The notes below the pieces were generated by a model. It did not search any database and was not told where the DNA came from. It was given only the letters and a program-made list of their open reading frames with translations. 63,818 nt of DNA from a virus: the IMG/VR virus record IMGVR_UViG_3300020020_000030, positions 1 through 63,818 of that record; one strand, 5' to 3'. How positions within the stretch are numbered: position 1 is the first letter of the stretch; each line of letters begins with the position of its first letter. A program made the position numbers and the translations under genes. Positions 4,027 through 55,425 of this stretch are shown here, one piece after another.

Positions 4027-5483
4027 GACGCCCTCCTCGTGGTGATCGTCGCCAGCGCCCGCTGAATCTGCGAGCGCTTCTGGGGTACGATACTACGCCC
4101 CACCGGCACTCCGAGGTCAGTCTTGCTCGAGCCCTTGTAGCGCATGAGCTCGGTCGCGCACCACACCATCGCGTCGAGCCGGTTCGGGCTCTTCATCCCG
4201 GGAACCCAGGTCACGAGCTCGTCCTCGAGATCGGAGGTGACGCCGCGCATGTTGCCCTTGGCGTCCGGCTTCTGCATCTTGGAGTGGAAGCCGCGGTGCT
4301 GCTCGTACAGCGCCGCGATCGGCTCGGCGCGCAGCCGCTTGCCGTCGACGGCCTTCGCCTCGATCACCCGGCCCTCGTACCCGTGCGATCGGAGGGTGTC
4401 CTCCACCATGTCGCCGCCGTAGTTGCGCTCGACCACCATCGCGTCTGCCTGGTAGAGCTCGTACGCGGTCTTGGCCTTCGCCGCCCAGCCGGCGGGGCTG
4501 TACTTGCCGGTGAAGTCGTCCAGCACGTAGAACCCGTCGTCGATCTTCGCCGCGACGATGATGCCGGTCTCGTCGGACGCCTTGCCCTGCGATCCGGCCG
4601 GGTCGATGCCCACCACGACGCGATCCCAGGATCGGGTATTCGGGTCGATGTACTGGAAGAGCTCGGTCGACCACAGCGCGCCCTCGACATCCTCGAGCAG
4701 CTCGGCCTCGAGCTCCTGCCGGCCCTTGCGGGTGCCCATCAGCGGCTCGATGACGCGGCGGATGTAGCCGGCGTCGAGGTTGTGGATGTTGATCGAGGTC
4801 GGCACCCGCACCAGCACGGTGCCATCCTCGGCGAGCCGGTCCTTGGTCCACTGGATCGGCAGCGGCGAAGAGGTCATCACCGTCTTGGCGCCGCCGGGCA
4901 GGCCCGACTGCCGGAGCCCGAATTGGTAGTTGGACCAGACCTCTTCGATCAGGTCCATGTGGCAGGGCTCGTCGAGCCAGCCGGCACCGTGCTCCGGGCC
5001 GCGGAGCTTGTTCGGCTCCTCGGCGGAGAACCCGAACGCCTTCGCGCCGTTCTGGAAGGTGAACTCCTTGAGCGCGGGCTTCCAGTCGTAGGTCTCGCCG
5101 GCGAGCTCGCACGCGCGGATCAGCCCACCGTCGGCCTCGACCATCGTCTGCCGGAAGTCGGTAGAGGTGCGGCCGACCAGCGCGATGCGGCTGACCAGCC
5201 GGGTGATCTTGCGGGCCCAATTGCTCGCCGCGCGGGTCTTGCCGGTGCCACGGCCGGACATGTGGAACCAGTTGTCCCACCACGCCCCCGCCGGCGGGTA
5301 CTGATCGGCGCGGGCGTGCGGGTAGGTGTACTCGTCGTGCGGCTCGCCGTTGCAGGTGCGGCCTCGGGCGCAGTACCAGACCTGCCGGCCGCTGGCCATC
5401 GCGGCATCGCGACGGCGCATCACCTCGGCCTGCGCCTTGGGTGAGAGCCGGCGCATCAGGTCATGCGGATCCGCGGTGCTCAT
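4023..5483 (-). CDS. terL: Terminase large subunit
   Basis: A 486-residue packaging motor. The N-terminal ATPase has Walker A SGRGTGKT at residues 76-83 and Walker B GWLDEP with Asp171-Glu172. The C-terminal RNase H-like nuclease shows its acidic residues in GIDPAGS (Asp294), VVERNYGG (Glu352) and RLDAMVW (Asp near 438). The enzyme docks on the portal, pumps DNA into the prohead with ATP and cuts the concatemer. Length is normal. It overlaps the upstream 110-residue gene by four bases and belongs to the minus-strand late operon. Confidence 0.95.
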   Translation of the reverse strand: MSTADPHDLMRRLSPKAQAEVMRRRDAAMASGRQVWYCARGRTCNGEPHDEYTYPHARADQYPPAGAWWDNWFHMSGRGTGKTRAASNWARKITRLVSRIALVGRTSTDFRQTMVEADGGLIRACELAGETYDWKPALKEFTFQNGAKAFGFSAEEPNKLRGPEHGAGWLDEPCHMDLIEEVWSNYQFGLRQSGLPGGAKTVMTSSPLPIQWTKDRLAEDGTVLVRVPTSINIHNLDAGYIRRVIEPLMGTRKGRQELEAELLEDVEGALWSTELFQYIDPNTRSWDRVVVGIDPAGSQGKASDETGIIVAAKIDDGFYVLDDFTGKYSPAGWAAKAKTAYELYQADAMVVERNYGGDMVEDTLRSHGYEGRVIEAKAVDGKRLRAEPIAALYEQHRGFHSKMQKPDAKGNMRGVTSDLEDELVTWVPGMKSPNRLDAMVWCATELMRYKGSSKTDLGVPVGRSIVPQKRSQIQRALATITTRRAS

Positions 5484-42824: not shown

Positions 42825-45800
42825 TTACGGGACCGAGACGGTGAGCGCGTCGGCGTACATGCGGATGTCGGAGTTGTTCCCCGACGCAGACGTCCAGGTG
42901 TACTCATAGGTGATCGCGACGCGCATCGCCACCGCACCCGCGGCAGGCGGGTGCGACTTGCCCGAGAACACCTTGCCACCGAAGTCTGCCGGCGTGTTCG
43001 TCCAGCCGAGCAGGACGGACGAGATGATCTGGTTGGCGCCGTCGAGCCAGTGGATCGACGCCCCGACAGACCGGAGGGTAGACCCGGGTGCGGCACCTGC
43101 GGAAAGCAGTAGCGCGGCCCAGACGGATGCCGAGACGCGCGTTCCCGCGGGCAGGCCGGCCAGACTGATCCCTTCGCTGAGGATCGTGGTGTCCGACACC
43201 ACGGTGTTGCCCGGGTTCGCCCCGCTGTTGCCGAGCAGTCGCGCCCGAACGGACGAGCTGCCGACCGAGGCGAGCTCGCTCGTCCACTCGAAGGACTTGA
43301 GCGGCTCGGGAATGTTCCCCGCCCACCAGACGCCCCACCCGTTCGCGTTGAGCTCGACCGAGGGGTTGGTGGCGAGGTTCGTCGCCGCGACCACGGTGCC
43401 GGATGCGATCTCGGCCGAGGGGTACGGCACCAGGTTGAACGGCACATCCTGCACCACGATCGGCGTCGAGGGCAGCAACGCGACCGGCGTGGTGACGCCG
43501 AACATCCACGGCACTGCGGCCACCAGAACGAACTCGACGATGTAGCCCCAGGTGTCGCCGCGGTGGAGCTTCTGCTCCACGATCGGCCCGGATACGCACG
43601 TCACGGTGTGCATGACGCGGACGAGCCGGTTGACCGCCGCCACGTAGCCCTCTTCGTCGGGGATCGAGATCACCGACCCGGTCTTGCCGAGCGACTGCGA
43701 GGCATCCGGCGTGCCGAGCCACTCGAAGGCGCGGACGTTCGTGCCTGGCGTCTCGAGCTCCTCCTCGGTGGAGTCGAGCGATGCACCGTCGAAGTACGGG
43801 CCGACGTAGTCGCCCTCGACGATCATGAAGCGGTCCCACCAGAGGTCGCCCGAGCCCGCCTCGCCACCGTGGTAGAGCCGGATCGTGTTGTAGCCGGCCA
43901 GCGACGAGGGTGTGGTGAAGGTGAACCGGATCTGGTGATCGCCCGGGGTGTTGGGTGCCTGCTGGCCCGGCCCCTGACCCTGAACCTGCGTGGTGCCGTT
44001 GAGGTGGACGAACACGCCCCGGGAGTTCGAGCTCAGCGGCCCGGTCAGCGGCGCCTCGACGTGCACCGTGACCATGAGCGTGTAGAGCGTGTCCGGGAGA
44101 AGGTACGTGCGCGGGTCGGTGATCGTCGAGACGTAGTTGTCGGTCATCCCGGCGCCAGTCGGCACCATGCGCAGCGAGTGGCCGCGATCAGCGGCCCACT
44201 GCGTCGAGTGCACCACCTGCACGCGGTCGCCCACGTAGTTCTCGACGCCCATCGCCTTCACAGTGCTCGTGCTGGCGTGCGGTGCGCCTACCCAGGCGAC
44301 CTCGGTGATGTCCGGGTCGTCGGGCAGCGTGTAGCCGTCGAAGTAGGGCCCGCCGTAGCCGCCGGCCACGAGCACCACGGCGTCGATGTCGACGATGTCG
44401 CCCACCTGGTGCCCGGCTCCCGGGGTGAGAAGCAGCCCAGTGTCAACGGGGCTGCTGGTGCCGGCGACGACAGAGGTGCGGAACTCGGTCCACACATCCT
44501 TGGGTGCGGTGAACACCGCGCCGTGAGCTCCGCGAATCTGCGGAGTGAACGCCTGGTCGCGAGTGCGCGGACGCACCTTGCCGACCAGTGTGTAGGTGAC
44601 GCCCTCGGGAGGGCTGGCCGTGGTCACTGGGAGCGCTGCCCAGGAGTCGGTGGAGAGCTCGAAGCGGAGCGCCTTTGCCCCGTCCGCCGGGGTGTCTATC
44701 GTCTGCCAGCCCCTCGCACCGACAGGGTTCGGTACATCTGCCACGCCGAGCGCGCTCTGCGTGCTCGTGCTCGCGTCCGGGGCTCCGGTCCAGTCGTAGG
44801 TTGCGCCGCCAGCATCGGCCGTTGAGCCATCGAAGTACGCCCCGGAGTAGTTGCCCTCGGTCACCAGGATCGACGCAAGCTCGACGCCGGTGCCCATGAT
44901 GGCCGAGTTCTCGAGGAACACCGTCGGGGCGGTCGCGGTGAACTGGTAGCGGTAGTCCGCGAACTCGCTCGTCCAGTCCAGCGGGCCGCTCAGGAACCCG
45001 CCGGCCCAGCGCAGCTCGGGGTTCGACGCGACCGCCCGGCCGCGCACCAGGATCGTGTACGGCTGGCCCGCCACGAGATCCATGAACAGGCCCCGACCGC
45101 CCTCACCTGTGTCGTCGATGACCGTCGCCATCGCGCCGCCCGCGCTGGTCTGCCAGGAGAGCTTGCCCTCGGCACGCAGGTTGCCCGGCACTGACATCGC
45201 GGAGAGGGTGCTCGTGCTGTCGTGTGGCACGCCGGTCCAGTCGTAGATGTTGCCGCCGTCAGGGGTGTCGCCGTCGAAGTAGTTGCCGTAGTAGGTTCCC
45301 GCCACGAGCATCACGGCGTCAACGTCGATGATGTCGCCCGGTCGGTGACCAGTCGAGTTGAGAAGGAACAGTCCGGTGGCGTCGGCGAACCCGTTCCCCG
45401 CGAGGAGGGTGGCGCGGAAGTCGGTCCAGACATCCTTGGGTGCGGTGAAGGCGAGGTCGCGGGTGCCACCGATTTGCGGCTGGATCAACGTGTCCCGGGT
45501 GCGCGGACGCACCTTCCCGAGAATCGTGTAGGTGTTCCCCACGGTCGGGTTCACCGTCAGTGGAAGGTTGACGTTGTCGCCGGAGTTCACCGTCCAGCGC
45601 AACACCTTGGACCCCACAACGGGAGCGTCTGCCACCTGCATCGCCGTCGCGCTCCCGGTGGCGGGAACGTCAGCGACGCCCGGAACGTTCTGCGTGCTGG
45701 TGCTGGCATCGGGCGTGCCGGTCCATGCGTAGGTGTAGGACGGGTCGTAGAGATAGGAGGGGGAGTCGTTGGCAGTCCCCTCCCAGGCAGCGGCGTTCCC

Positions 45801-48101
45801 ACCTGCGGCGGCACGGTCGCCCCATACGCTGTCGGTCGGCGGTCCCTCGACCAAGGACGTGACGCCGGTGATGTAGGCCGCATCCGTAGCAGGAGCAGCG
45901 GCCCCGTCGATGCGCTCCACCACCGCCCAGTCTCTACCGGACGCCGAGGCTTCCGGCGTGACGATCCACGTCCAGACATTGGGGGTCAGCACGGTCCAGA
46001 CTTCCGGGTGGCCGCCGTCAAACCACACCGCGGCCCGATAGCCGGGGGCAGTTGCGAGCACCCACGCGCCGATCCAGCGGGTGTAGCCCACCGCAGCATC
46101 CGTGCCGAGCAGGTACATCAGCTGACGACCCGGGCCAGTGTGGTGAGTCGCCTTCCCCGCGACCGTGATGCCTTGAGGGTGGGGAACAGGGACGGGCGTG
46201 TTCTTGGCGAACGTCCACTCGGTGTCGTACGCCCGAAAGTACCCCTTCGGCCCTGCCGTTGTGGGGTTCGGTGCAACGTTTCGACGCGCCTTCACTGGCG
46301 TCGAGCCGTCGAAGTACGGGCCGGTGTAGGTGCCTGCCACCAGCAAGACCTCATCGACGTCGATCACGTCGCCGACCTGATGGCCCGCCGTGCTGATGTA
46401 CAGCCCGGTGTCGAGCGGGTAGGCGTCGCCCGTTGAGGCAGTGAATCGGAACTCCGTCCAGACATCCTTGGGCGCGGTGAACTGGCCTCCGCGAGTCCCG
46501 CCGATCCCGGCCAAGAGCACCTGATCGCGGGTCCGCGGGCGCACCTTGCCCATGATCGTGTACGGACCCCCGGCGGGAGGGTTCGCCGTGAGGGATATTG
46601 GGCCCTGGCCGGCATAGGTGACGACGAGGCGGAGAGCCTTCGACCTATTGGTGGGTGTGTCGACGGTCTGATAGCCAACCCCCGTCACTCCCCCGGGCTG
46701 CCACCCCGCCACGCCGGGTGCGTGAGCGACGCTCGCGCTGGCGTCGGCGGTCCCGGTCCAGCCGTAGGTGAAGTCGCCGGCCGCGGTGGTCGAGCCGTCG
46801 AAGTAAGCCTTGGCGGTGGCGGACTTCTCCAACAGCGTGTTCCGCATGATGAAGTACGCATTGTCGCCGCCACCAGGAACCGTCACCCAGACCTTCACCT
46901 GATCCGCGCCCTGCGGGAGCACCAGCGGAGCGCTGTTGATACGGACTGTCGTCCCCGGGAGCACGGTGACCATCGTGCCCACGACCTCGCTACCGATCTG
47001 CGCGGTCGCGCTCCACGCTTGCAGGTTGATCTGGACGTTCAGCTGCGGCAGGCCCGCCTCGACTTGGAACTCGGCAGAGAACGTCACGGTGTCACCCTGC
47101 AAGACCGCGCCCTTGCCGGTCGTCCACGGATCGTCGGTGACGCTTTGCAGCCAGTTCTGGTAGAAGTTGCCGCCACCGACCCGCAGGCCAGTCGGGGTGA
47201 CGGTGGCGCTGATGCCACCCTCGCTGGCCGCCCAGTGCCCGACCGCTGACCCGGTGTTCAGGCGGGGCCAGTAGTGCAGGTTCCGGCGCGCCTCGACCGG
47301 CGCGATGGGCGCCTCGAACGACGGGTTGGTGGCCAGGTTCGTCAGGAGCACCTGCGGAGCGCCCGCCGTCTCGAAGGATGGGTTGGTGACCAGGTTCTCG
47401 GCCTGCACGGTCAGCGCGCCCAGCGCCCGGAAGGCCGGGTTGGTCATGCCGTTGCCGCGCACTACGACAGCGGCGCCGGCCGTCTCCATTGACGGGTTCG
47501 TGGCGAGGTTCTCGGCGAGGATGACCTCGGCGCCAGGCAGCTCGAACGAGGGGTGCGTGACGAGGTTGGTGAGCTCGTCGTTCCACACCGCTCCGGGCTT
47601 GGTGATGTCCGCCCGCTCGGGCGGACATGCCGTGAAGAACCGGGTGTCGGATGCGCCGCAGGCGTCGGCGTGCGTGGCGCACTTGCCTGGCGTGAGCGCC
47701 GAGTTCAGCCAGGAGAACCCCGCCTCGAGCGCATCCTCGCCGATCGCCGAGAGCACTGCCCGCACGCGCATCCGGCGCGTGGCGTGGCGGACGCGGCCGA
47801 CGACGCCGCCATCCTGCACACCCTCGGTGACGCTCGCCTCGCGAGTGGAGTCGGGGATGCCCTCAATGGTGAGGGCGTGCGCACCCAGGAAGCGATGCGT
47901 GACCTCGTCCTCGACGTCGTACCAGGGGGCCTGCATGATGTTCGCGTAGGTGTAGGCGTCATCGTTCAGCACGTCGCGGATGCCGTCGCACGGCGGACAC
48001 TGCAACCAGGCCACCGGACAGGGCGCGGTGCGGGTGTAGCCCAGCGAACGAGCGCTGTTGAGCACCTCGCCGCCGCCGAGCTCTAGATAGCCCTCGAACA
48101 C
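42825..48101 (-). CDS. Giant minor tail protein with repeated binding modules
   Basis: A 1758-residue protein. The first 170 residues are a distal-tail-like domain (LELGGGEVLNSARSLGYTRT, with several Cys pairs). Then come five short ATNPSFE-type linkers (about residues 180-270) and at least five jelly-roll-like modules of 150-340 residues ending in YFDGxT...WxGxxxAS. Three share the block KVRPRTRD...FTAPKDVWTEFR. Repeated modules of this type bind carbohydrate, so this is a strong candidate for the main adhesion protein. GTG start two bases past the tape-measure stop. Confidence 0.82.
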   Translation of the reverse strand: MFEGYLELGGGEVLNSARSLGYTRTAPCPVAWLQCPPCDGIRDVLNDDAYTYANIMQAPWYDVEDEVTHRFLGAHALTIEGIPDSTREASVTEGVQDGGVVGRVRHATRRMRVRAVLSAIGEDALEAGFSWLNSALTPGKCATHADACGASDTRFFTACPPERADITKPGAVWNDELTNLVTHPSFELPGAEVILAENLATNPSMETAGAAVVVRGNGMTNPAFRALGALTVQAENLVTNPSFETAGAPQVLLTNLATNPSFEAPIAPVEARRNLHYWPRLNTGSAVGHWAASEGGISATVTPTGLRVGGGNFYQNWLQSVTDDPWTTGKGAVLQGDTVTFSAEFQVEAGLPQLNVQINLQAWSATAQIGSEVVGTMVTVLPGTTVRINSAPLVLPQGADQVKVWVTVPGGGDNAYFIMRNTLLEKSATAKAYFDGSTTAAGDFTYGWTGTADASASVAHAPGVAGWQPGGVTGVGYQTVDTPTNRSKALRLVVTYAGQGPISLTANPPAGGPYTIMGKVRPRTRDQVLLAGIGGTRGGQFTAPKDVWTEFRFTASTGDAYPLDTGLYISTAGHQVGDVIDVDEVLLVAGTYTGPYFDGSTPVKARRNVAPNPTTAGPKGYFRAYDTEWTFAKNTPVPVPHPQGITVAGKATHHTGPGRQLMYLLGTDAAVGYTRWIGAWVLATAPGYRAAVWFDGGHPEVWTVLTPNVWTWIVTPEASASGRDWAVVERIDGAAAPATDAAYITGVTSLVEGPPTDSVWGDRAAAGGNAAAWEGTANDSPSYLYDPSYTYAWTGTPDASTSTQNVPGVADVPATGSATAMQVADAPVVGSKVLRWTVNSGDNVNLPLTVNPTVGNTYTILGKVRPRTRDTLIQPQIGGTRDLAFTAPKDVWTDFRATLLAGNGFADATGLFLLNSTGHRPGDIIDVDAVMLVAGTYYGNYFDGDTPDGGNIYDWTGVPHDSTSTLSAMSVPGNLRAEGKLSWQTSAGGAMATVIDDTGEGGRGLFMDLVAGQPYTILVRGRAVASNPELRWAGGFLSGPLDWTSEFADYRYQFTATAPTVFLENSAIMGTGVELASILVTEGNYSGAYFDGSTADAGGATYDWTGAPDASTSTQSALGVADVPNPVGARGWQTIDTPADGAKALRFELSTDSWAALPVTTASPPEGVTYTLVGKVRPRTRDQAFTPQIRGAHGAVFTAPKDVWTEFRTSVVAGTSSPVDTGLLLTPGAGHQVGDIVDIDAVVLVAGGYGGPYFDGYTLPDDPDITEVAWVGAPHASTSTVKAMGVENYVGDRVQVVHSTQWAADRGHSLRMVPTGAGMTDNYVSTITDPRTYLLPDTLYTLMVTVHVEAPLTGPLSSNSRGVFVHLNGTTQVQGQGPGQQAPNTPGDHQIRFTFTTPSSLAGYNTIRLYHGGEAGSGDLWWDRFMIVEGDYVGPYFDGASLDSTEEELETPGTNVRAFEWLGTPDASQSLGKTGSVISIPDEEGYVAAVNRLVRVMHTVTCVSGPIVEQKLHRGDTWGYIVEFVLVAAVPWMFGVTTPVALLPSTPIVVQDVPFNLVPYPSAEIASGTVVAATNLATNPSVELNANGWGVWWAGNIPEPLKSFEWTSELASVGSSSVRARLLGNSGANPGNTVVSDTTILSEGISLAGLPAGTRVSASVWAALLLSAGAAPGSTLRSVGASIHWLDGANQIISSVLLGWTNTPADFGGKVFSGKSHPPAAGAVAMRVAITYEYTWTSASGNNSDIRMYADALTVSVP
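44250..46700. repeat. Tandem repeats of about 1 kb in the tail gene
   Basis: Three units within the giant minor tail gene share long similar blocks; the codons for KVRPRTRD lie near 44590, 45520 and 46550, about 1 kb apart, and each unit ends in a YFDGxT codon block near 44340, 45280 and 46310. Similarity is clear in protein and visible in DNA, implying duplication followed by divergence or recombination. Confidence 0.7.
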
Positions 48102-48102
48102 G

Positions 48103-51100
48103 TCAGGCCCCGATCCTCTCCGCGATTCGGTTCACGGTCATTGTGGCTGTCGCCTCGGGCGCCAGCGAGCCCTGCACCACGATGGCCCCGGACTCGATGT
48201 TCACCACGCGCGACGTCCCTGCGCTAACGGGAGTGCCGCCACCGGCGCCGGCGCCGGCATAGTCGCCGTACGACATCTTGCCCTGCGCGACCGCAGAGAG
48301 TGCGCGCACCGCCGGATCGACCTGGCTGAGCGGCCGGCGCAGAGGCACGAGCGCCTCGGGCCCCGCCTCGCCCCAGACCGACAGCGTGGCCTGCGACGCG
48401 ATGCCGCCGGCAGCCCGGTTGTCCTGCGTGACCGAGCGGTGGATGGTGGTGATGGTGATGGTCTTGTTGGTCGGCAGCCGGTCGAGCGAGCTCTTCACCG
48501 CGTTCGCTCCCGAGATGGCGTCGTGGTTGTCGACGTCGATGTCAGGCGTGTAGGTCTTGGCGTCCAGCTTCTCGAGCGCATCTGACGTCGCCCGGGTCTT
48601 GTCCTTCGCCTTGGAGTCGTTGACGTCGATCTTGGGGACGGCCGTCGACGCATCCATCGCGTCGAGCTTCTTCTTGGTGGCGTCGGCCTTGGTCGTGCCC
48701 GGGACGTTGTTGACGTCGAGGGTCGGCGTGAAGGTCTGCTTGCCGAAGGTGCTCATCTTGTTCGCAGTGCTCTCGAGCACCGCGCCGGCGGGGTCTCCGT
48801 TCGCGTCCAGCTTGGTCGTGTGCGTGGTGTCCGCGAAGGTCTGCATCTTGTTCGCGGTGTCCTCGAGCACAGCGCCGGCAGGATCGCCGTTCGCATCGAG
48901 CGTCGTGGTGGTGACCTTGGCCTCGAGACCCATGAGCTTCGAGACGGTGTCGTCGATGACTCCGCCGACCGGGTCGCCGTTCGCGTCGAGCGTGGTCTTG
49001 TAGACCTTGTTCTCGAAGCCGTAGAGCTGCGTGGCCGTCGCCTCGAGGGCGTAGCTCATCGGGTCGCCGTTGGCGTCGAGCGTGGTGGTGTAGGTGCTGA
49101 TCTGTAGGTTGTCGAGCTCCGCCTGAATCGCAGCCGCCTGCGCCGCCGCCTCTTCCGCGTCCAGCGCCAGCACCGGGTTGACCTCGATCAGCCCGAGCTC
49201 GTAGAGGCGCGTCGCGAAGGCATCCGCCATCTCCATGCCGGCCGACGTGTTGGCGCTGATCAGCGTCTCGACGTCGCCGGGGATGAGGCCGAGCTTGTCG
49301 GCGTACTCCTCGGCCGAGAGGCCACCGAGATCCATGCCGTCCACGGCGGCGATGACCGCATCGCGGCCAGCCTGAATCGACTTCGCCGCCTCCTCGGAGC
49401 TGCCGGTGAGGTTGTACTGCTCGCTGGCGAGATCCAGCGTGGCCGCGGCCAGGTCGAGGACGGCCTGCTGGTTCGCCGCGCCGGCCTCGGTGCTCGCGGC
49501 CCATGCGTTGCCGTTCTGGCCGAGGCTCTCATTGACCGCCCGGATCGACTCTTCGTAGTCGAGCGATGCGCTCTGCTGGTCGCGGAACGCCGACCCCAGT
49601 GTGGTGATCCCATCCGCGACACCCTCCACGGCGTCGAGCGCGGCGAGCGACTTGCCGGTGAGCAGCTCAAGCGCGTCGGCCTGCAGCTCGGCGGCTCCTG
49701 CGCCATCCTCGAGTCCGCCGGTGAGCGCCACGAAAGCGTCGAGGCTCCCCTCGGCGGCGGGCTGTGCCCGGCCCAGCGCCAACCGCACCAGGTCGGTGCT
49801 CTCGACCACGCCGTCCTCGGCGTATGCGGCATCCTCGAGCGCGGACTTGAACTCCGGCATCGAGTCGAGCATCGCCAGGACTTGCTTATCCGTGGCGCCG
49901 AGCTCCTTCGCCCAGCCCGAGAAGTTCTCGACCTGATCCTCGAGCGGGAGATCCTTCATGCCCTTGTCGAGCTCCATGAGCGCGGCGTTCAGGTCGTGCG
50001 CACCGCTCGAGGTCTCCGTCATGGCGGCACCGAACTGATCGAAGATGTTGCCGCTGTTCCACTTGGCCAGCCCCGCGATCGCCTCGTCGGCGTTCTTGAA
50101 CGGCTTCGAGAGTCCGTCGGCCGCGCCGGAGAGCTTGTCGATCGTGGCGATGAGCGACTGCTGCCCATGCGTGGCGTTCTTGACGATGCCGTCGATCTGC
50201 GCGAGCTCGCGCGCCCAGTCGGCCACGGCATCCGTGAGTGCGACGAATCCGACGACGGCGGCGCCGATGAGGCCCGCCTTGCCGAGTGCGCCGAGCTTGC
50301 CGCTGAGCTTGCCCGTGCTGGCGGCTGCTGTCCCCGCGGAGATGCCGACCTTCTCGAGAGCCCCCGAGAGCAGGCCGAACCCCTTCGAGACCGCGCCGGC
50401 GATCTTGAGCGCGGCCAGCGCGCTGCCGATGGCCATGAGCCCGCCGGCGATGGCGACCCAGGCGCCGGGAGGCACGGCCTCGACCATGTCGTTCAGCGCC
50501 TCGGCGACGCCGACCATCGTCGGTGTCAGTGGAGCCAGCGTCTCGCCGATGTCGGCGAGGATGTCCACGAACAGGCCGAGCGGATCGAGCGCCCCGAGGA
50601 TCTCGAGCAGGTTGCCGATCGAGGGCGCGAGCCGCTCGAGGTTCTCGAGCAGCTTCACCGTGTTGTCGATGGCCTGCGGCGTGACCAGGTCGTTGAGTGC
50701 CTGGCTCACGGCGTCGAGCGTGCCGCCGAAGGCGTCCCACACGCGCTGCGCGTTGCCGACCCAGTCCTCGAAGCCGCTCGAGCGGGTGAAGGCGTCGAAC
50801 TTGTTCGTGAGCCGGTCGAGCCAGTCGAACAGATCCTCGACGAGAGGCTGTGCGCCGTTGAATGCCCGGATCAGCGCCGTGCCGAAGGTGCCGACGATGC
50901 CGCCGAGCCGGGTGAGGTTGGGCCCTGCGAGCAGGATGGCCTCGTTGATCTCCTCGAACGCCGCGGTGCCGGGCTTGGTCCCATCGGCGAAGTCGTCGAT
51001 CAGGTCGCCGAGCGCGCTGCCGACCTTCTGCAGCGCGGGCGAGAGGGCGGTGACGCTGCCGCGCAGATCGTAGAAGGCGTCGTCGATCTCGTCGAACGCC

Positions 51101-52212
51101 GCCTGCGAGATGGCGTCCCCGACGTCGCCGAGCGTCTCCTTGAAGCGGTTGAAGGACTGGATCGTCGGCCGCATCGCTGCTGGCGCTGACCCGATCTCCT
51201 GGTTCAGATCCGAGAACACCGAGACGAGACCGACGACGCCGATGACCGCGGAGGTTGCGGCACCGCCGATGGCAACCAGAGCGGCGCCGGCAGCCGAGCC
51301 GAGCGCCGCGACCTGCGGAGCGGCGCTGGCGACCAGGCCGATCACGAGCTGCACGTCCTTGTCGAGCGCCGCGAACGGGTTCAGCTTTTGCAGGTTCGCC
51401 CACACTCGGCTGAGTCGCTGCGTCGAGACCTCGAGCCGGTTGATGTTCTTGGTCGAGCGATCGACAGAGTCGCGGGTCTTGTCGAGGCTGTCGACCCACT
51501 CCTCGATGTCGCCACGCGAGCGGCCGAGTGCCGCGCCGGTGCCCTCGAGCTCACTCTTGAGCCGCGCGAAGGCGACGTCCGTGCCGCCGACCTCCGCCGC
51601 CATCTTGCCGAAGGCGTCGGTGTCGCCGGCCGTGCGGATCAGCCGGCGCAGGTCTGCGTCGAGAGACTCGGTCTGCCGGGCGAGATCCTTCTCCCGCGCG
51701 ATCACCGGCTCGAGCTCGTCGCCGAGCTCGCGGGCAGCCTTCTGCATCTGCCGCATGGTCGTCCATGCGAGGACGTTCTTCTCGACCAGGTCGCCGTTCG
51801 CGTCGACGGTGCGGTAGGTCTCCTTGTTCAGCGCCTCGAGATCGAGATCGAGCTGCCTGACCGCGTCGTCGACGGTGTCGAACCCGCTGGCGAACTCCCG
51901 GAAGGTGTCCTTGTCGGCGAGGATCTCGGCGACGTTGCGCTGCATCTTGCGGAAGCGGTCGGTGACGACGTCGTTGAAGTCGTCCGTGAACCGGCGCGCG
52001 GCGAGCTTGCCCTGGGCCGAGAGCTTGTCCGCGAAGTTCTGCCCGATGCTCGAGATGCGCTTCTGGAACGACGCCTCGAAGTTGTCCCCGAAGTCCTTGC
52101 CACCCTTGGTGCCGGCGGCGGCGATCTGGTTCGCGAGCTTGCGGGCCTGAGCCGGCAGCTTGTTCCCATCGAGACCGACGAGGAACTCTACGCGCCCGAT
52201 CGTTGTCGCCAC
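48103..52212 (-). CDS. Tape measure protein
   Basis: A 1369-residue protein that sets tail length and is ejected with the DNA. The N-terminal third is helical and coiled-coil-rich, with a MATTIGRVEFLVGLD opening seen in other tape measures. Hydrophobic segments near residues 280-310 and 570-640 could insert in membranes. The C-terminal region has four to five 30-residue repeats built on TTLDANGDP. GTG 52212 follows GGGGGGGT. At about 0.15 nm per residue the tail would be roughly 200 nm long. Confidence 0.92.
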   Translation of the reverse strand: MATTIGRVEFLVGLDGNKLPAQARKLANQIAAAGTKGGKDFGDNFEASFQKRISSIGQNFADKLSAQGKLAARRFTDDFNDVVTDRFRKMQRNVAEILADKDTFREFASGFDTVDDAVRQLDLDLEALNKETYRTVDANGDLVEKNVLAWTTMRQMQKAARELGDELEPVIAREKDLARQTESLDADLRRLIRTAGDTDAFGKMAAEVGGTDVAFARLKSELEGTGAALGRSRGDIEEWVDSLDKTRDSVDRSTKNINRLEVSTQRLSRVWANLQKLNPFAALDKDVQLVIGLVASAAPQVAALGSAAGAALVAIGGAATSAVIGVVGLVSVFSDLNQEIGSAPAAMRPTIQSFNRFKETLGDVGDAISQAAFDEIDDAFYDLRGSVTALSPALQKVGSALGDLIDDFADGTKPGTAAFEEINEAILLAGPNLTRLGGIVGTFGTALIRAFNGAQPLVEDLFDWLDRLTNKFDAFTRSSGFEDWVGNAQRVWDAFGGTLDAVSQALNDLVTPQAIDNTVKLLENLERLAPSIGNLLEILGALDPLGLFVDILADIGETLAPLTPTMVGVAEALNDMVEAVPPGAWVAIAGGLMAIGSALAALKIAGAVSKGFGLLSGALEKVGISAGTAAASTGKLSGKLGALGKAGLIGAAVVGFVALTDAVADWARELAQIDGIVKNATHGQQSLIATIDKLSGAADGLSKPFKNADEAIAGLAKWNSGNIFDQFGAAMTETSSGAHDLNAALMELDKGMKDLPLEDQVENFSGWAKELGATDKQVLAMLDSMPEFKSALEDAAYAEDGVVESTDLVRLALGRAQPAAEGSLDAFVALTGGLEDGAGAAELQADALELLTGKSLAALDAVEGVADGITTLGSAFRDQQSASLDYEESIRAVNESLGQNGNAWAASTEAGAANQQAVLDLAAATLDLASEQYNLTGSSEEAAKSIQAGRDAVIAAVDGMDLGGLSAEEYADKLGLIPGDVETLISANTSAGMEMADAFATRLYELGLIEVNPVLALDAEEAAAQAAAIQAELDNLQISTYTTTLDANGDPMSYALEATATQLYGFENKVYKTTLDANGDPVGGVIDDTVSKLMGLEAKVTTTTLDANGDPAGAVLEDTANKMQTFADTTHTTKLDANGDPAGAVLESTANKMSTFGKQTFTPTLDVNNVPGTTKADATKKKLDAMDASTAVPKIDVNDSKAKDKTRATSDALEKLDAKTYTPDIDVDNHDAISGANAVKSSLDRLPTNKTITITTIHRSVTQDNRAAGGIASQATLSVWGEAGPEALVPLRRPLSQVDPAVRALSAVAQGKMSYGDYAGAGAGGGTPVSAGTSRVVNIESGAIVVQGSLAPEATATMTVNRIAERIGA
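48690..49090. repeat. 90-bp repeats in the tape measure gene
   Basis: Codons for LDANGDP recur about every 90 bp, near 48800, 48890, 48980 and 49070, with a degenerate copy near 48710. Each unit encodes 30 residues. Exact phasing preserves the frame, so copy-number change would alter the length of this part of the protein. Confidence 0.75.
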
Positions 52213-54869: not shown

Positions 54870-54999
54870 CGTAGCGGGTCGCTGAGATCTCGGTTATCTC
54901 GCAGATATCTTGGTTCGACTCCAACGGCGTGCGGGGCCTTACACGCCTCCCGCTGGGCCCGATGGCAGGGCCACCCGGGGCTCATTCCCATCCGCTACG
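54870..54999 (+). ncRNA. Y RNA-like unit 1 with permuted tRNA-like domain
   Basis: A 130-base unit closed by CGTAGCGG (54870-54877) and CCGCTACG (54992-54999). The 5' side continues GTCGC, then a hairpin GAGAT/ATCTC with loop CTCGGTT (54884-54900), matching the Ro60-binding motif shared by all units; the 3' side ends CATTCCCAT before the closing strand. Inside are a T-arm-like hairpin (TTGG, loop TTCGACT, CCAA at 54910-54924), an acceptor-like hairpin (GGCGTG/CACGCC, 54926-54947) and a D-arm-like hairpin (GGCCC, loop GATGGCA, GGGCC at 54956-54972), in the order T, acceptor, D. The unit should bind the Ro60 protein encoded downstream. Confidence 0.75.
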
Positions 55000-55004
55000 A
55001 CATC

Positions 55005-55138
55005 TTGAGACGGGTCGATCGTCGTCGGTTACCTCTTGTAAAGGGCTGGTCCTGGGTTCGAGTCCCAGTCGCGGAGCAATCCGCGGTAGCTCAGTTGGCA
55101 GAGCGGCAAACCCCGGTGGCACTTCACATCCGTCTCAA
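55005..55138 (+). ncRNA. Y RNA-like unit 2 with near-perfect permuted tRNA domain
   Basis: A 134-base unit closed by a perfect 9-bp stem, TTGAGACGG (55005-55013) with CCGTCTCAA (55130-55138). The motif GTCGATCGTCGTCGGTTA follows the 5' strand and GGCACTTCACAT precedes the 3' strand, similar to the Ro60-binding strands of vertebrate Y RNAs. Inside: T arm CTGGG-TTCGAGT-CCCAG (55052-55068); acceptor stem TCGCGGA (55069-55075) closed by the GNRA loop GCAA on TCCGCGG (55080-55086); TA; and D arm GCTC-AGTTGGCA-GAGC (55089-55104). It is a tRNA whose ends have been moved from the acceptor stem to the anticodon position. A small CCT-CTTGTAA-AGG hairpin sits before the variable loop TGGTC. Confidence 0.85.
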
Positions 55139-55146
55139 CTCACTCC

Positions 55147-55216
55147 CTGCGGGTCGCTCGCGGTCGGTTATCTACTCGAAATGGATCAAGCCCGGTCGCA
55201 ACATCCACATCCGCAG
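55147..55216 (+). ncRNA. Y RNA-like unit 3, minimal form
   Basis: A 70-base unit closed by CTGCGG (55147-55152) and CCGCAG (55211-55216). It has the shared 5' motif (GGGTCGCTCGCGGTCGGTTATCT) and the shared 3' ending (CATCCACAT before the closing strand) but only about 20 bases between them, so no tRNA-like domain fits. It may be a stripped Ro60 ligand or a decayed copy. Confidence 0.6.
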
Positions 55217-55322
55217 CACAATCTTTGCTCTGACGTCACCGCGTGAACCTCCCCCCGGGAGGAGCCGGCCAAGGCCCAGGGGCGCAGTCGGGTCAGACGG
55301 CTGCTCCCCACAACTCTGTCCA
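55217..55322 (+). other. Hairpin-rich spacer between RNA units 3 and 4
   Basis: This spacer holds a hairpin CCTCCC/GGGAGG with loop CCC (55248-55262), a GGCC-AA-GGCC stem, and a long-range pair TCTGAC (55229-55234) with GTCAGA (55292-55297) that encloses them. It lacks the Ro60-binding motif. It could be a processing signal, part of unit 3 or the remains of a fifth unit. Confidence 0.45.
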
Positions 55323-55413
55323 TTCGGGTCGCAGAGATCGGTTATCTCGGTACAGCACCTCTCAGGGGTGGGCGGGTTCAACCCCGCCGTTCCGGTCTCG
55401 ACTCACATCTGAA
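55323..55413 (+). ncRNA. Y RNA-like unit 4, next to the Ro60 start
   Basis: A 91-base unit closed by TTCGG (55323-55327) with CTGAA (55409-55413), 5 bp including one wobble. It has the shared motif GGGTCGCAGAGATCGGTTATCTC, with hairpin GAGAT/ATCTC (55334-55348), and the shared 3' ACTCACATC. Inside are a CACCTC/GGGGTG hairpin (55356-55370) and a T-arm-like hairpin GGCGGG-TTCAAC-CCCGCC (55371-55388), whose loop is one base shorter than usual. No D arm is clear. Its 3' strand overlaps the ribosome site of the Ro60 gene, so folding or Ro60 binding could control translation. Confidence 0.7.
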
Positions 55414-55425
55414 AGGGGCATCGCC

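What the first reader, a model, noticed from the sequence alone, without database searches (positions are those of the whole stretch)
54870..55413. Y RNA units show graded loss of the tRNA-like domain
Units 1 and 2 have T arm, acceptor hairpin and D arm in permuted order, unit 4 keeps a T-arm-like hairpin without a D arm, and unit 3 has no room for either. All keep the Ro60-binding ends. The set looks like duplicates evolving different effector parts, or decaying, around a fixed protein-binding part.
Basis: partly seen in the sequence, partly recalled or inferred. Interest (0 to 1): 0.7.

Follow-up and report, generated by a model that had tools for sequence, protein, structure and literature searches.

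The report
Phage Y RNA array, mixed heads
Just upstream of a phage gene for the RNA-binding protein Ro60 lie four small RNA genes that share the same Ro60-binding ends but carry different heads, one of them a rearranged complete tRNA; relatives show that the short forms are a conserved kind in their own right, not worn-down copies.

Summary
Four Y-RNA-like units (54870-54999, 55005-55138, 55147-55216, 55319-55417) lie directly upstream of an intact Ro60 gene (55426-57003). The same motif-plus-stem units occur upstream of Ro60 in 131 of 175 related loci (293 distinct units, none on the antisense strand), 1-6 per locus.

Unit 1 has T arm, acceptor-like hairpin and D arm. Unit 3 has one anticodon-arm-like hairpin. 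Unit 4 has two hairpins; its 'T arm' has a 6-base loop and fails the T-arm test.

'Graded loss' is not supported. Short units are a conserved, covarying class in phages and bacteria. Counterparts of units 3 and 4 in outgroup phages are already short, so unit 4's hairpins look gained. In phages Cashline and BearBQ the tRNA core is present or absent as a block at one site. The 'different heads on a fixed Ro60-binding part' half is supported.

Unit 4 overlaps the Ro60 ribosome-binding site, suggesting autoregulation (inferred). No unit reaches Rfam's YrlA cut-off. New variant of a known kind; the key Y RNA papers could not be read, so priority is uncertain.

The parts
54870..54999 (+). Y-like unit 1 (130 nt): Ro60-type ends, small hairpin, T arm, acceptor-like hairpin, D arm
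   Evidence: MFE z -2.5; closest relative L016 unit 1
54910..54924 (+). unit 1 T arm (4 bp, loop TTCGACT)
54926..54947 (+). unit 1 acceptor-like hairpin GGCGTG-CGGGGCCTTA-CACGCC
   Evidence: sequence; one search shows it is not standard 7-bp tRNA spacing
54956..54972 (+). unit 1 D arm GGCCC-GATGGCA-GGGCC
55005..55138 (+). Y-like unit 2 (134 nt): complete permuted tRNA in Ro60-type ends
   Evidence: (YrlA 36.4 bits)
55032..55044 (+). unit 2 anticodon-arm-like hairpin CCT-CTTGTAA-AGG
55052..55068 (+). unit 2 T arm CTGGG-TTCGAGT-CCCAG
55069..55086 (+). unit 2 acceptor stem, 7 bp, joined by a GCAA cap (TCGCGGA-GCAA-TCCGCGG)
55089..55104 (+). unit 2 D arm GCTC-AGTTGGCA-GAGC
55147..55216 (+). Y-like unit 3 (70 nt), short class
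55170..55186 (+). unit 3 anticodon-arm-like hairpin ATCTA-CTCGAAA-TGGAT
55217..55318 (+). spacer between units 3 and 4, partly conserved with L016 (GGCCAAGGCCCAG)
   Evidence: role unknown
55319..55417 (+). Y-like unit 4 in the Ro60 leader; stem TTCGGGT 55323-55329 / ATCTGAA 55407-55413
   Evidence: (MFE z -2.8)
55371..55388 (+). unit 4 hairpin GGCGGG-TTCAAC-CCCGCC (6-base loop; not a standard T arm)
55412..55418 (+). ribosome-binding site AAAGGGG of the Ro60 gene, overlapping and largely paired in the unit 4 closing stem
   Evidence: mean unpaired 0.34
55426..57003 (+). Ro60 gene, 525 aa, TROVE and Ro60 vWA domains, metal-site DxSxS kept

Best explanation
This is a tandem array of four Y RNA genes in front of, and probably co-transcribed with, a phage Ro60 gene. 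All share a Ro60-binding frame (closing stem, GGGUCG, CGGUUAYC, CAC-AUC) and differ in the head it displays. Unit 2 carries a complete circularly permuted tRNA. Unit 1 carries a compact T-arm/acceptor/D-arm head. Unit 3 carries only an anticodon-arm-like hairpin. Unit 4, in the Ro60 mRNA leader, carries two plain hairpins. Likely mechanism: Ro60 binds the frame of each unit (inferred from the motif and adjacency). The head decides what is tethered to Ro60: a tRNA-binding partner such as the nuclease PNPase for tRNA-like heads, as in the RYPER complex, or no partner, only gating of the Ro60 ring, for short heads (inferred). Heads are gained, lost or exchanged as blocks while the frame stays (shown by comparison). 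Unit 4, whose closing stem overlaps the Ro60 ribosome-binding site, may let Ro60 limit its own translation (inferred, about 35%). Shown: units, heads, conservation, covariation, block differences. Not shown: transcription, processing, Ro60 binding, partners.
For: Ro60 identity. Census: 293 distinct units upstream of Ro60 in 131 of 175 loci, 0 antisense. T arms in 145 of 263 distinct units against 0.3 expected; T plus D arms 106 against 0. Anticodon-like hairpin 114 against 11.9; in short units 28 of 60 against 2.3. Acceptor stem under fixed tRNA spacing 64.8% paired, 44.8% when strands are swapped between units (maximum 49.6%). ARAGORN finds a tRNA in 80 of 145 T-arm units after rotation, in 8 units in native order, 0 shuffled. 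Compensatory changes in 15/19 pairs of short and 23/27 pairs of long units. Short counterparts of units 3 and 4 in relatives. Cashline/BearBQ: Ro60 91% identical, same flanks, tRNA core present or absent as a block. In phages the unit nearest Ro60 is short in 21 of 31 loci against 28 of 107 other units.
Against: No transcript, binding or processing data. No promoter or terminator consensus was found at the array, so co-transcription rests on spacing alone (median gap 15 nt). The unit finder demands the motif and a closing stem, so pairing in that stem is partly built in and counts are lower bounds (it recovered only two units in prophiGD43A-5, where reading the sequence suggests about five). 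Loci are related, so P values overstate independence. In FuzzBuster and SM23 the predicted best fold of the leader is a different hairpin, and L016 has no leader unit, so the autoregulation step is weak. About half of the short units lack the anticodon-like hairpin.
Confidence: 0.72

Rival explanations
1. Graded decay: units 3 and 4 are duplicates of a tRNA-like Y RNA that have progressively lost the tRNA-like domain.
For: Within the window alone the four units can be ordered by content; the Cashline/BearBQ pair shows that a core can be absent at a site where a relative has it, and the direction in that pair is not known.
Against: Short units are a conserved, covarying class shared with bacteria; outgroup counterparts of units 3 and 4 are already short; the known difference is a block, not a gradient; unit 4's hairpin fails the T-arm test.
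Confidence: 0.1
2. Units 3 and 4, or at least unit 4, are cis-acting leader elements through which Ro60 represses its own translation, and only units 1 and 2 act as free Y RNAs.
For: Unit 4 overlaps the ribosome-binding site in the window and L017, and the same arrangement TTCGGGTCG...CACATCYGAAAGG abuts the start codon in FuzzBuster and SM23; units nearest Ro60 tend to be short in phages.
Against: Most nearest units in bacteria end 20-50 nt before the start; the best predicted fold in FuzzBuster and SM23 differs; unit 3 is far from the start codon.
Confidence: 0.3
3. The units are remnants of ordinary tRNA genes with no Ro60 function.
For: Unit 2 is close to tRNA-Thr(TGT) after rotation; database records annotate parts of such units as tRNAs.
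Against: ARAGORN finds no tRNA in the window; the order is permuted; Ro60-type ends are kept in all units and lie next to Ro60 in most loci; compensatory changes throughout.
Confidence: 0.02

Closest known systems
YrlA RNAs (Rfam RF02553; Salmonella, M. smegmatis)
   Same: Ro60-binding closing stem; permuted tRNA-like head with T, acceptor and D arms (PMC8394870, PMC11472068); gene next to Ro60.
   Different: Below Rfam's cut-off (unit 2 36.4 bits against 69). Unit 2 adds an anticodon-arm-like hairpin not mentioned in the YrlA descriptions I could read; units 3 and 4 have no tRNA-like head; four tandem units.
Salmonella rsr-yrlBA-rtcBA operon
   Same: More than one Y RNA gene beside Ro60 (PMC7790460).
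   Different: Two Y RNAs and RNA-repair genes there; four units and no RtcB in this record. The structure of YrlB could not be read, so it may resemble the short class.
D. radiodurans Y RNA / RYPER
   Same: Ro60 plus Y RNA that tethers PNPase (PMC4726728, PMC8394870).
   Different: Partner binding is inferred here; sequences were not compared directly.
Y RNAs of mycobacteriophages
   Same: Phage-borne Y RNAs have been reported (Chen et al. 2014 as cited in PMC12282133).
   Different: That paper is not held; whether arrays and short units were described is unknown to me.

Membership tests
Bacterial Y RNA (general) | gene adjacent to Ro60 | tested here: met
Bacterial Y RNA (general) | closing stem with conserved Ro60-site sequence | tested here: met
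   all four units; covariation across relatives
Bacterial Y RNA (general) | physical binding to Ro60 | not testable with these tools
   -
YrlA (Rfam RF02553) | score at or above the family's gathering cut-off | tested here: not met
   unit 2 36.4 against 69; units 1, 3, 4 no match; units in 16 related loci also miss it, so the model fits this lineage poorly
YrlA (Rfam RF02553) | T arm, capped acceptor stem and D arm in permuted order | tested here: met
   units 1 and 2 only; units 3 and 4 not
YrlA (Rfam RF02553) | modification by TruB and DusA, PNPase tethering | not testable with these tools
   -
tRNA | canonical order and cloverleaf | tested here: not met
   no ARAGORN hit in the window; only after rotation
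Ro60 protein | TROVE and vWA domains with DxSxS | tested here: met

The most novel reading that the evidence does not exclude
The array is a set of interchangeable heads on a Ro60-binding frame in which many units display an anticodon-arm mimic with different loops; in the phage they would act as decoys or lures for host nucleases that cut tRNA anticodon loops, with Ro60 holding or recycling the bait.
Probability: 0.1. Interest if true: 0.85.

Novelty: new variant of a known kind. Interest (0 to 1): 0.6.

Why it matters
It shows Y RNAs evolving as modular families: one protein-binding frame, several head types side by side, conserved from phages to Actinobacteria, and heads exchanged as blocks at a fixed site. 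That gives a ready comparative set for asking what bacterial Y RNA heads do, adds an anticodon-arm mimic to the known tRNA mimicry, and offers a testable autoregulation model for Ro60. None of the 16 related loci scanned has a YrlA match at Rfam's cut-off, so this lineage is invisible to standard annotation.

Tried and rejected
Single-protein search of viral contigs found nothing; an alignment query was needed. Wolin-laboratory papers on YrlA are not held. Promoter/terminator scan gave nothing. Pattern scans of viral contigs for the leader unit and for a permuted tRNA-Asn head returned one and no contig. RtcB partner gene: absent from the record. T-arm reading of unit 4's hairpin: rejected, 6-base loop. 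Conserved spacer motif GGCCAAGGCCCAG: nine viral contigs, one of them that of L016; the rest not followed. The idea that all short units carry an anticodon arm: rejected, about half do.

Full report
The window is a 63.8 kb virus record. At 55426-57003 it encodes a 525-residue Ro60 with TROVE and Ro60 vWA domains and an intact DxSxS metal site. Four units lie directly upstream, each with a closing stem, GGGTCG, CGGTTA[TC]C and C[AC]CATC[CT]: 54870-54999, 55005-55138, 55147-55216 and 55319-55417. Random sequence of the same composition gives 0.25 such hits per 63.8 kb strand.

Heads. Unit 2 obeys tRNA spacing exactly: T stem 5 bp, a 7-bp acceptor stem capped by GCAA, TA linker, D stem 4 bp, a five-base variable loop and a 3-bp anticodon-like hairpin with loop CUUGUAA. 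After rotation ARAGORN calls a tRNA in every trimming tried, tRNA-Thr(TGT) in the tightest one. Rfam YrlA matches it at 36.4 bits, below the cut-off of 69. Unit 1 has a T arm (TTCGACT loop), an acceptor-like hairpin and a D arm (GATGGCA loop), without standard acceptor spacing. Unit 3 has only a five-pair hairpin with the seven-base loop CUCGAAA. Unit 4 has two hairpins; the one with UUCAAC has a six-base loop and fails the T-arm criterion.

Census. I fetched 14 GenBank phage loci, 80 viral contigs and 80 genome loci that encode Ro60. A descriptor with the relaxed motif finds 293 distinct units within 2.6 kb upstream in 131 of 175 loci (window included) and none on the antisense strand; 92 loci have two or more units, and 65 carry both T-arm and T-less units. 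Lengths fall into two groups, 60-79 and 120-149 nt. With the stricter motif, T arms occur in 145 of 263 units (0.3 expected), T plus D arms in 106 (0 expected) and anticodon-like hairpins in 114 (11.9 expected). ARAGORN finds a tRNA in 80 of the 145 T-arm units after circular rotation, in 8 units in native order and in none of the shuffled ones. With the spacing of a tRNA imposed and no search, the acceptor stem pairs at 64.8%, against 44.8% when strands are exchanged between units.

Short units are not wreckage. An alignment of 35 short units from phages, Nocardia, Propionibacteriaceae and Leifsonia folds into the same closing and upper stems, with compensatory changes in 15 of 19 pairs; the 49 long units show them in 23 of 27 pairs, including the acceptor stem. 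Of 60 short T-less units 28 carry the anticodon-like hairpin (2.3 expected, maximum 7 in 200 shuffles). The L164 unit from a Propionibacteriaceae genome has the same loop sequence as unit 3, CTCGAAA.

Direction of change. The two closest relatives (Ro60 60-62% identical) carry four units (L016) and six (L017); Microbacterium phages FuzzBuster and SM23 (Ro60 about 39%) carry three each. The ends of unit 4 are most similar to those of the units abutting Ro60 in L017 (74 nt), FuzzBuster (68) and SM23 (71), all short. The unit before it is 66, 66 and 69 nt in L016, FuzzBuster and SM23, and 113 nt with a different insert in L017. So short is the likely older state at both sites; the two hairpins of unit 4 and the insert of L017 unit 5 look gained. 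This rests on few relatives, on position and on end similarity, not on a tree. Phages Cashline and BearBQ (Ro60 91% identical, near-identical flanks and first unit) differ at the second site: 135 nt with T arm, acceptor and D arm against 74 nt without, while the frame and the ATTTGGA loop are shared. Heads therefore change as blocks; the direction in that pair is unknown.

Leader unit. In the window and L017 the Ro60 ribosome-binding site AAAGGGG lies in the extended closing stem of the last unit (mean unpaired probability 0.34); FuzzBuster and SM23 have the same arrangement of motifs but a different best fold. In phages the unit nearest Ro60 is short in 21 of 31 loci, other units in 28 of 107 (Fisher P about 4e-5, related loci not corrected); in genomes the trend is weak (P 0.08). 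Autoregulation is a plausible inference, no more.

Known context. Bacterial Y RNAs bind Ro60 by the basal stem, carry a tRNA-like domain with D, T and acceptor arms and can tether PNPase (PMC8394870, PMC4726728); the YrlA head superposes on tRNA with a circular permutation (PMC11472068). Salmonella has two Y RNAs in an RNA-repair operon, and YrlA has been proposed as a competitive inhibitor of an anticodon nuclease (PMC7790460). Y RNAs have been reported in mycobacteriophages (as cited in PMC12282133). The primary papers were not readable here, so I cannot say whether arrays, short units or anticodon arms were noted before.

Verdict: real units, wrong direction of the story. The set is best read as a conserved, modular Y RNA array with different heads, not a decay series.

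Noticed in passing
L004 2198-2264 (SM23); L009 1684-1762 (prophiGD43A-5): Genes annotated as tRNA-Asn and tRNA-Thr lie within or largely within permuted Y RNA units (L004 2190-2333, L009 1687-1824); probable misannotation.
   Followed up: partly
L154 4374-4507: A canonical-order tRNA (ARAGORN tRNA-Val 4401-4473) sits inside a Y-type frame in a Chloroflexi genome, as if a whole tRNA were used as the head.
   Followed up: partly
L139, L146, L148, L154, downstream of Ro60: Anaerolineae/Chloroflexi genomes carry 5-8 Y-like units downstream of Ro60, long and short mixed.
   Followed up: partly
L124 2193-2302: A Nocardia carnea Y unit passes Rfam's cut-off for the nematode stem-bulge RNA family RF01656 (42.0 against 38 bits).
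   Followed up: no
window 55217-55318; L016 2355-2480: Spacer before the last unit shares GGCCAAGGCCCAG with L016, where it is unusually structured (z -5.5) though not in the window (z -0.9).
   Followed up: partly
window 48103-52212, minus strand: Large ORF, probably tape measure, with repeated TLDANGDP peptide motifs; the next ORF (42825-48101) repeats NLATNPSFE-like motifs.
   Followed up: no
L003 2423-2442, L004 2418-2437: In FuzzBuster and SM23 the leader can form CUUC.ACCC-UUC-GGGU.CGAAG, which would compete with the Y fold: a possible switch.
   Followed up: no
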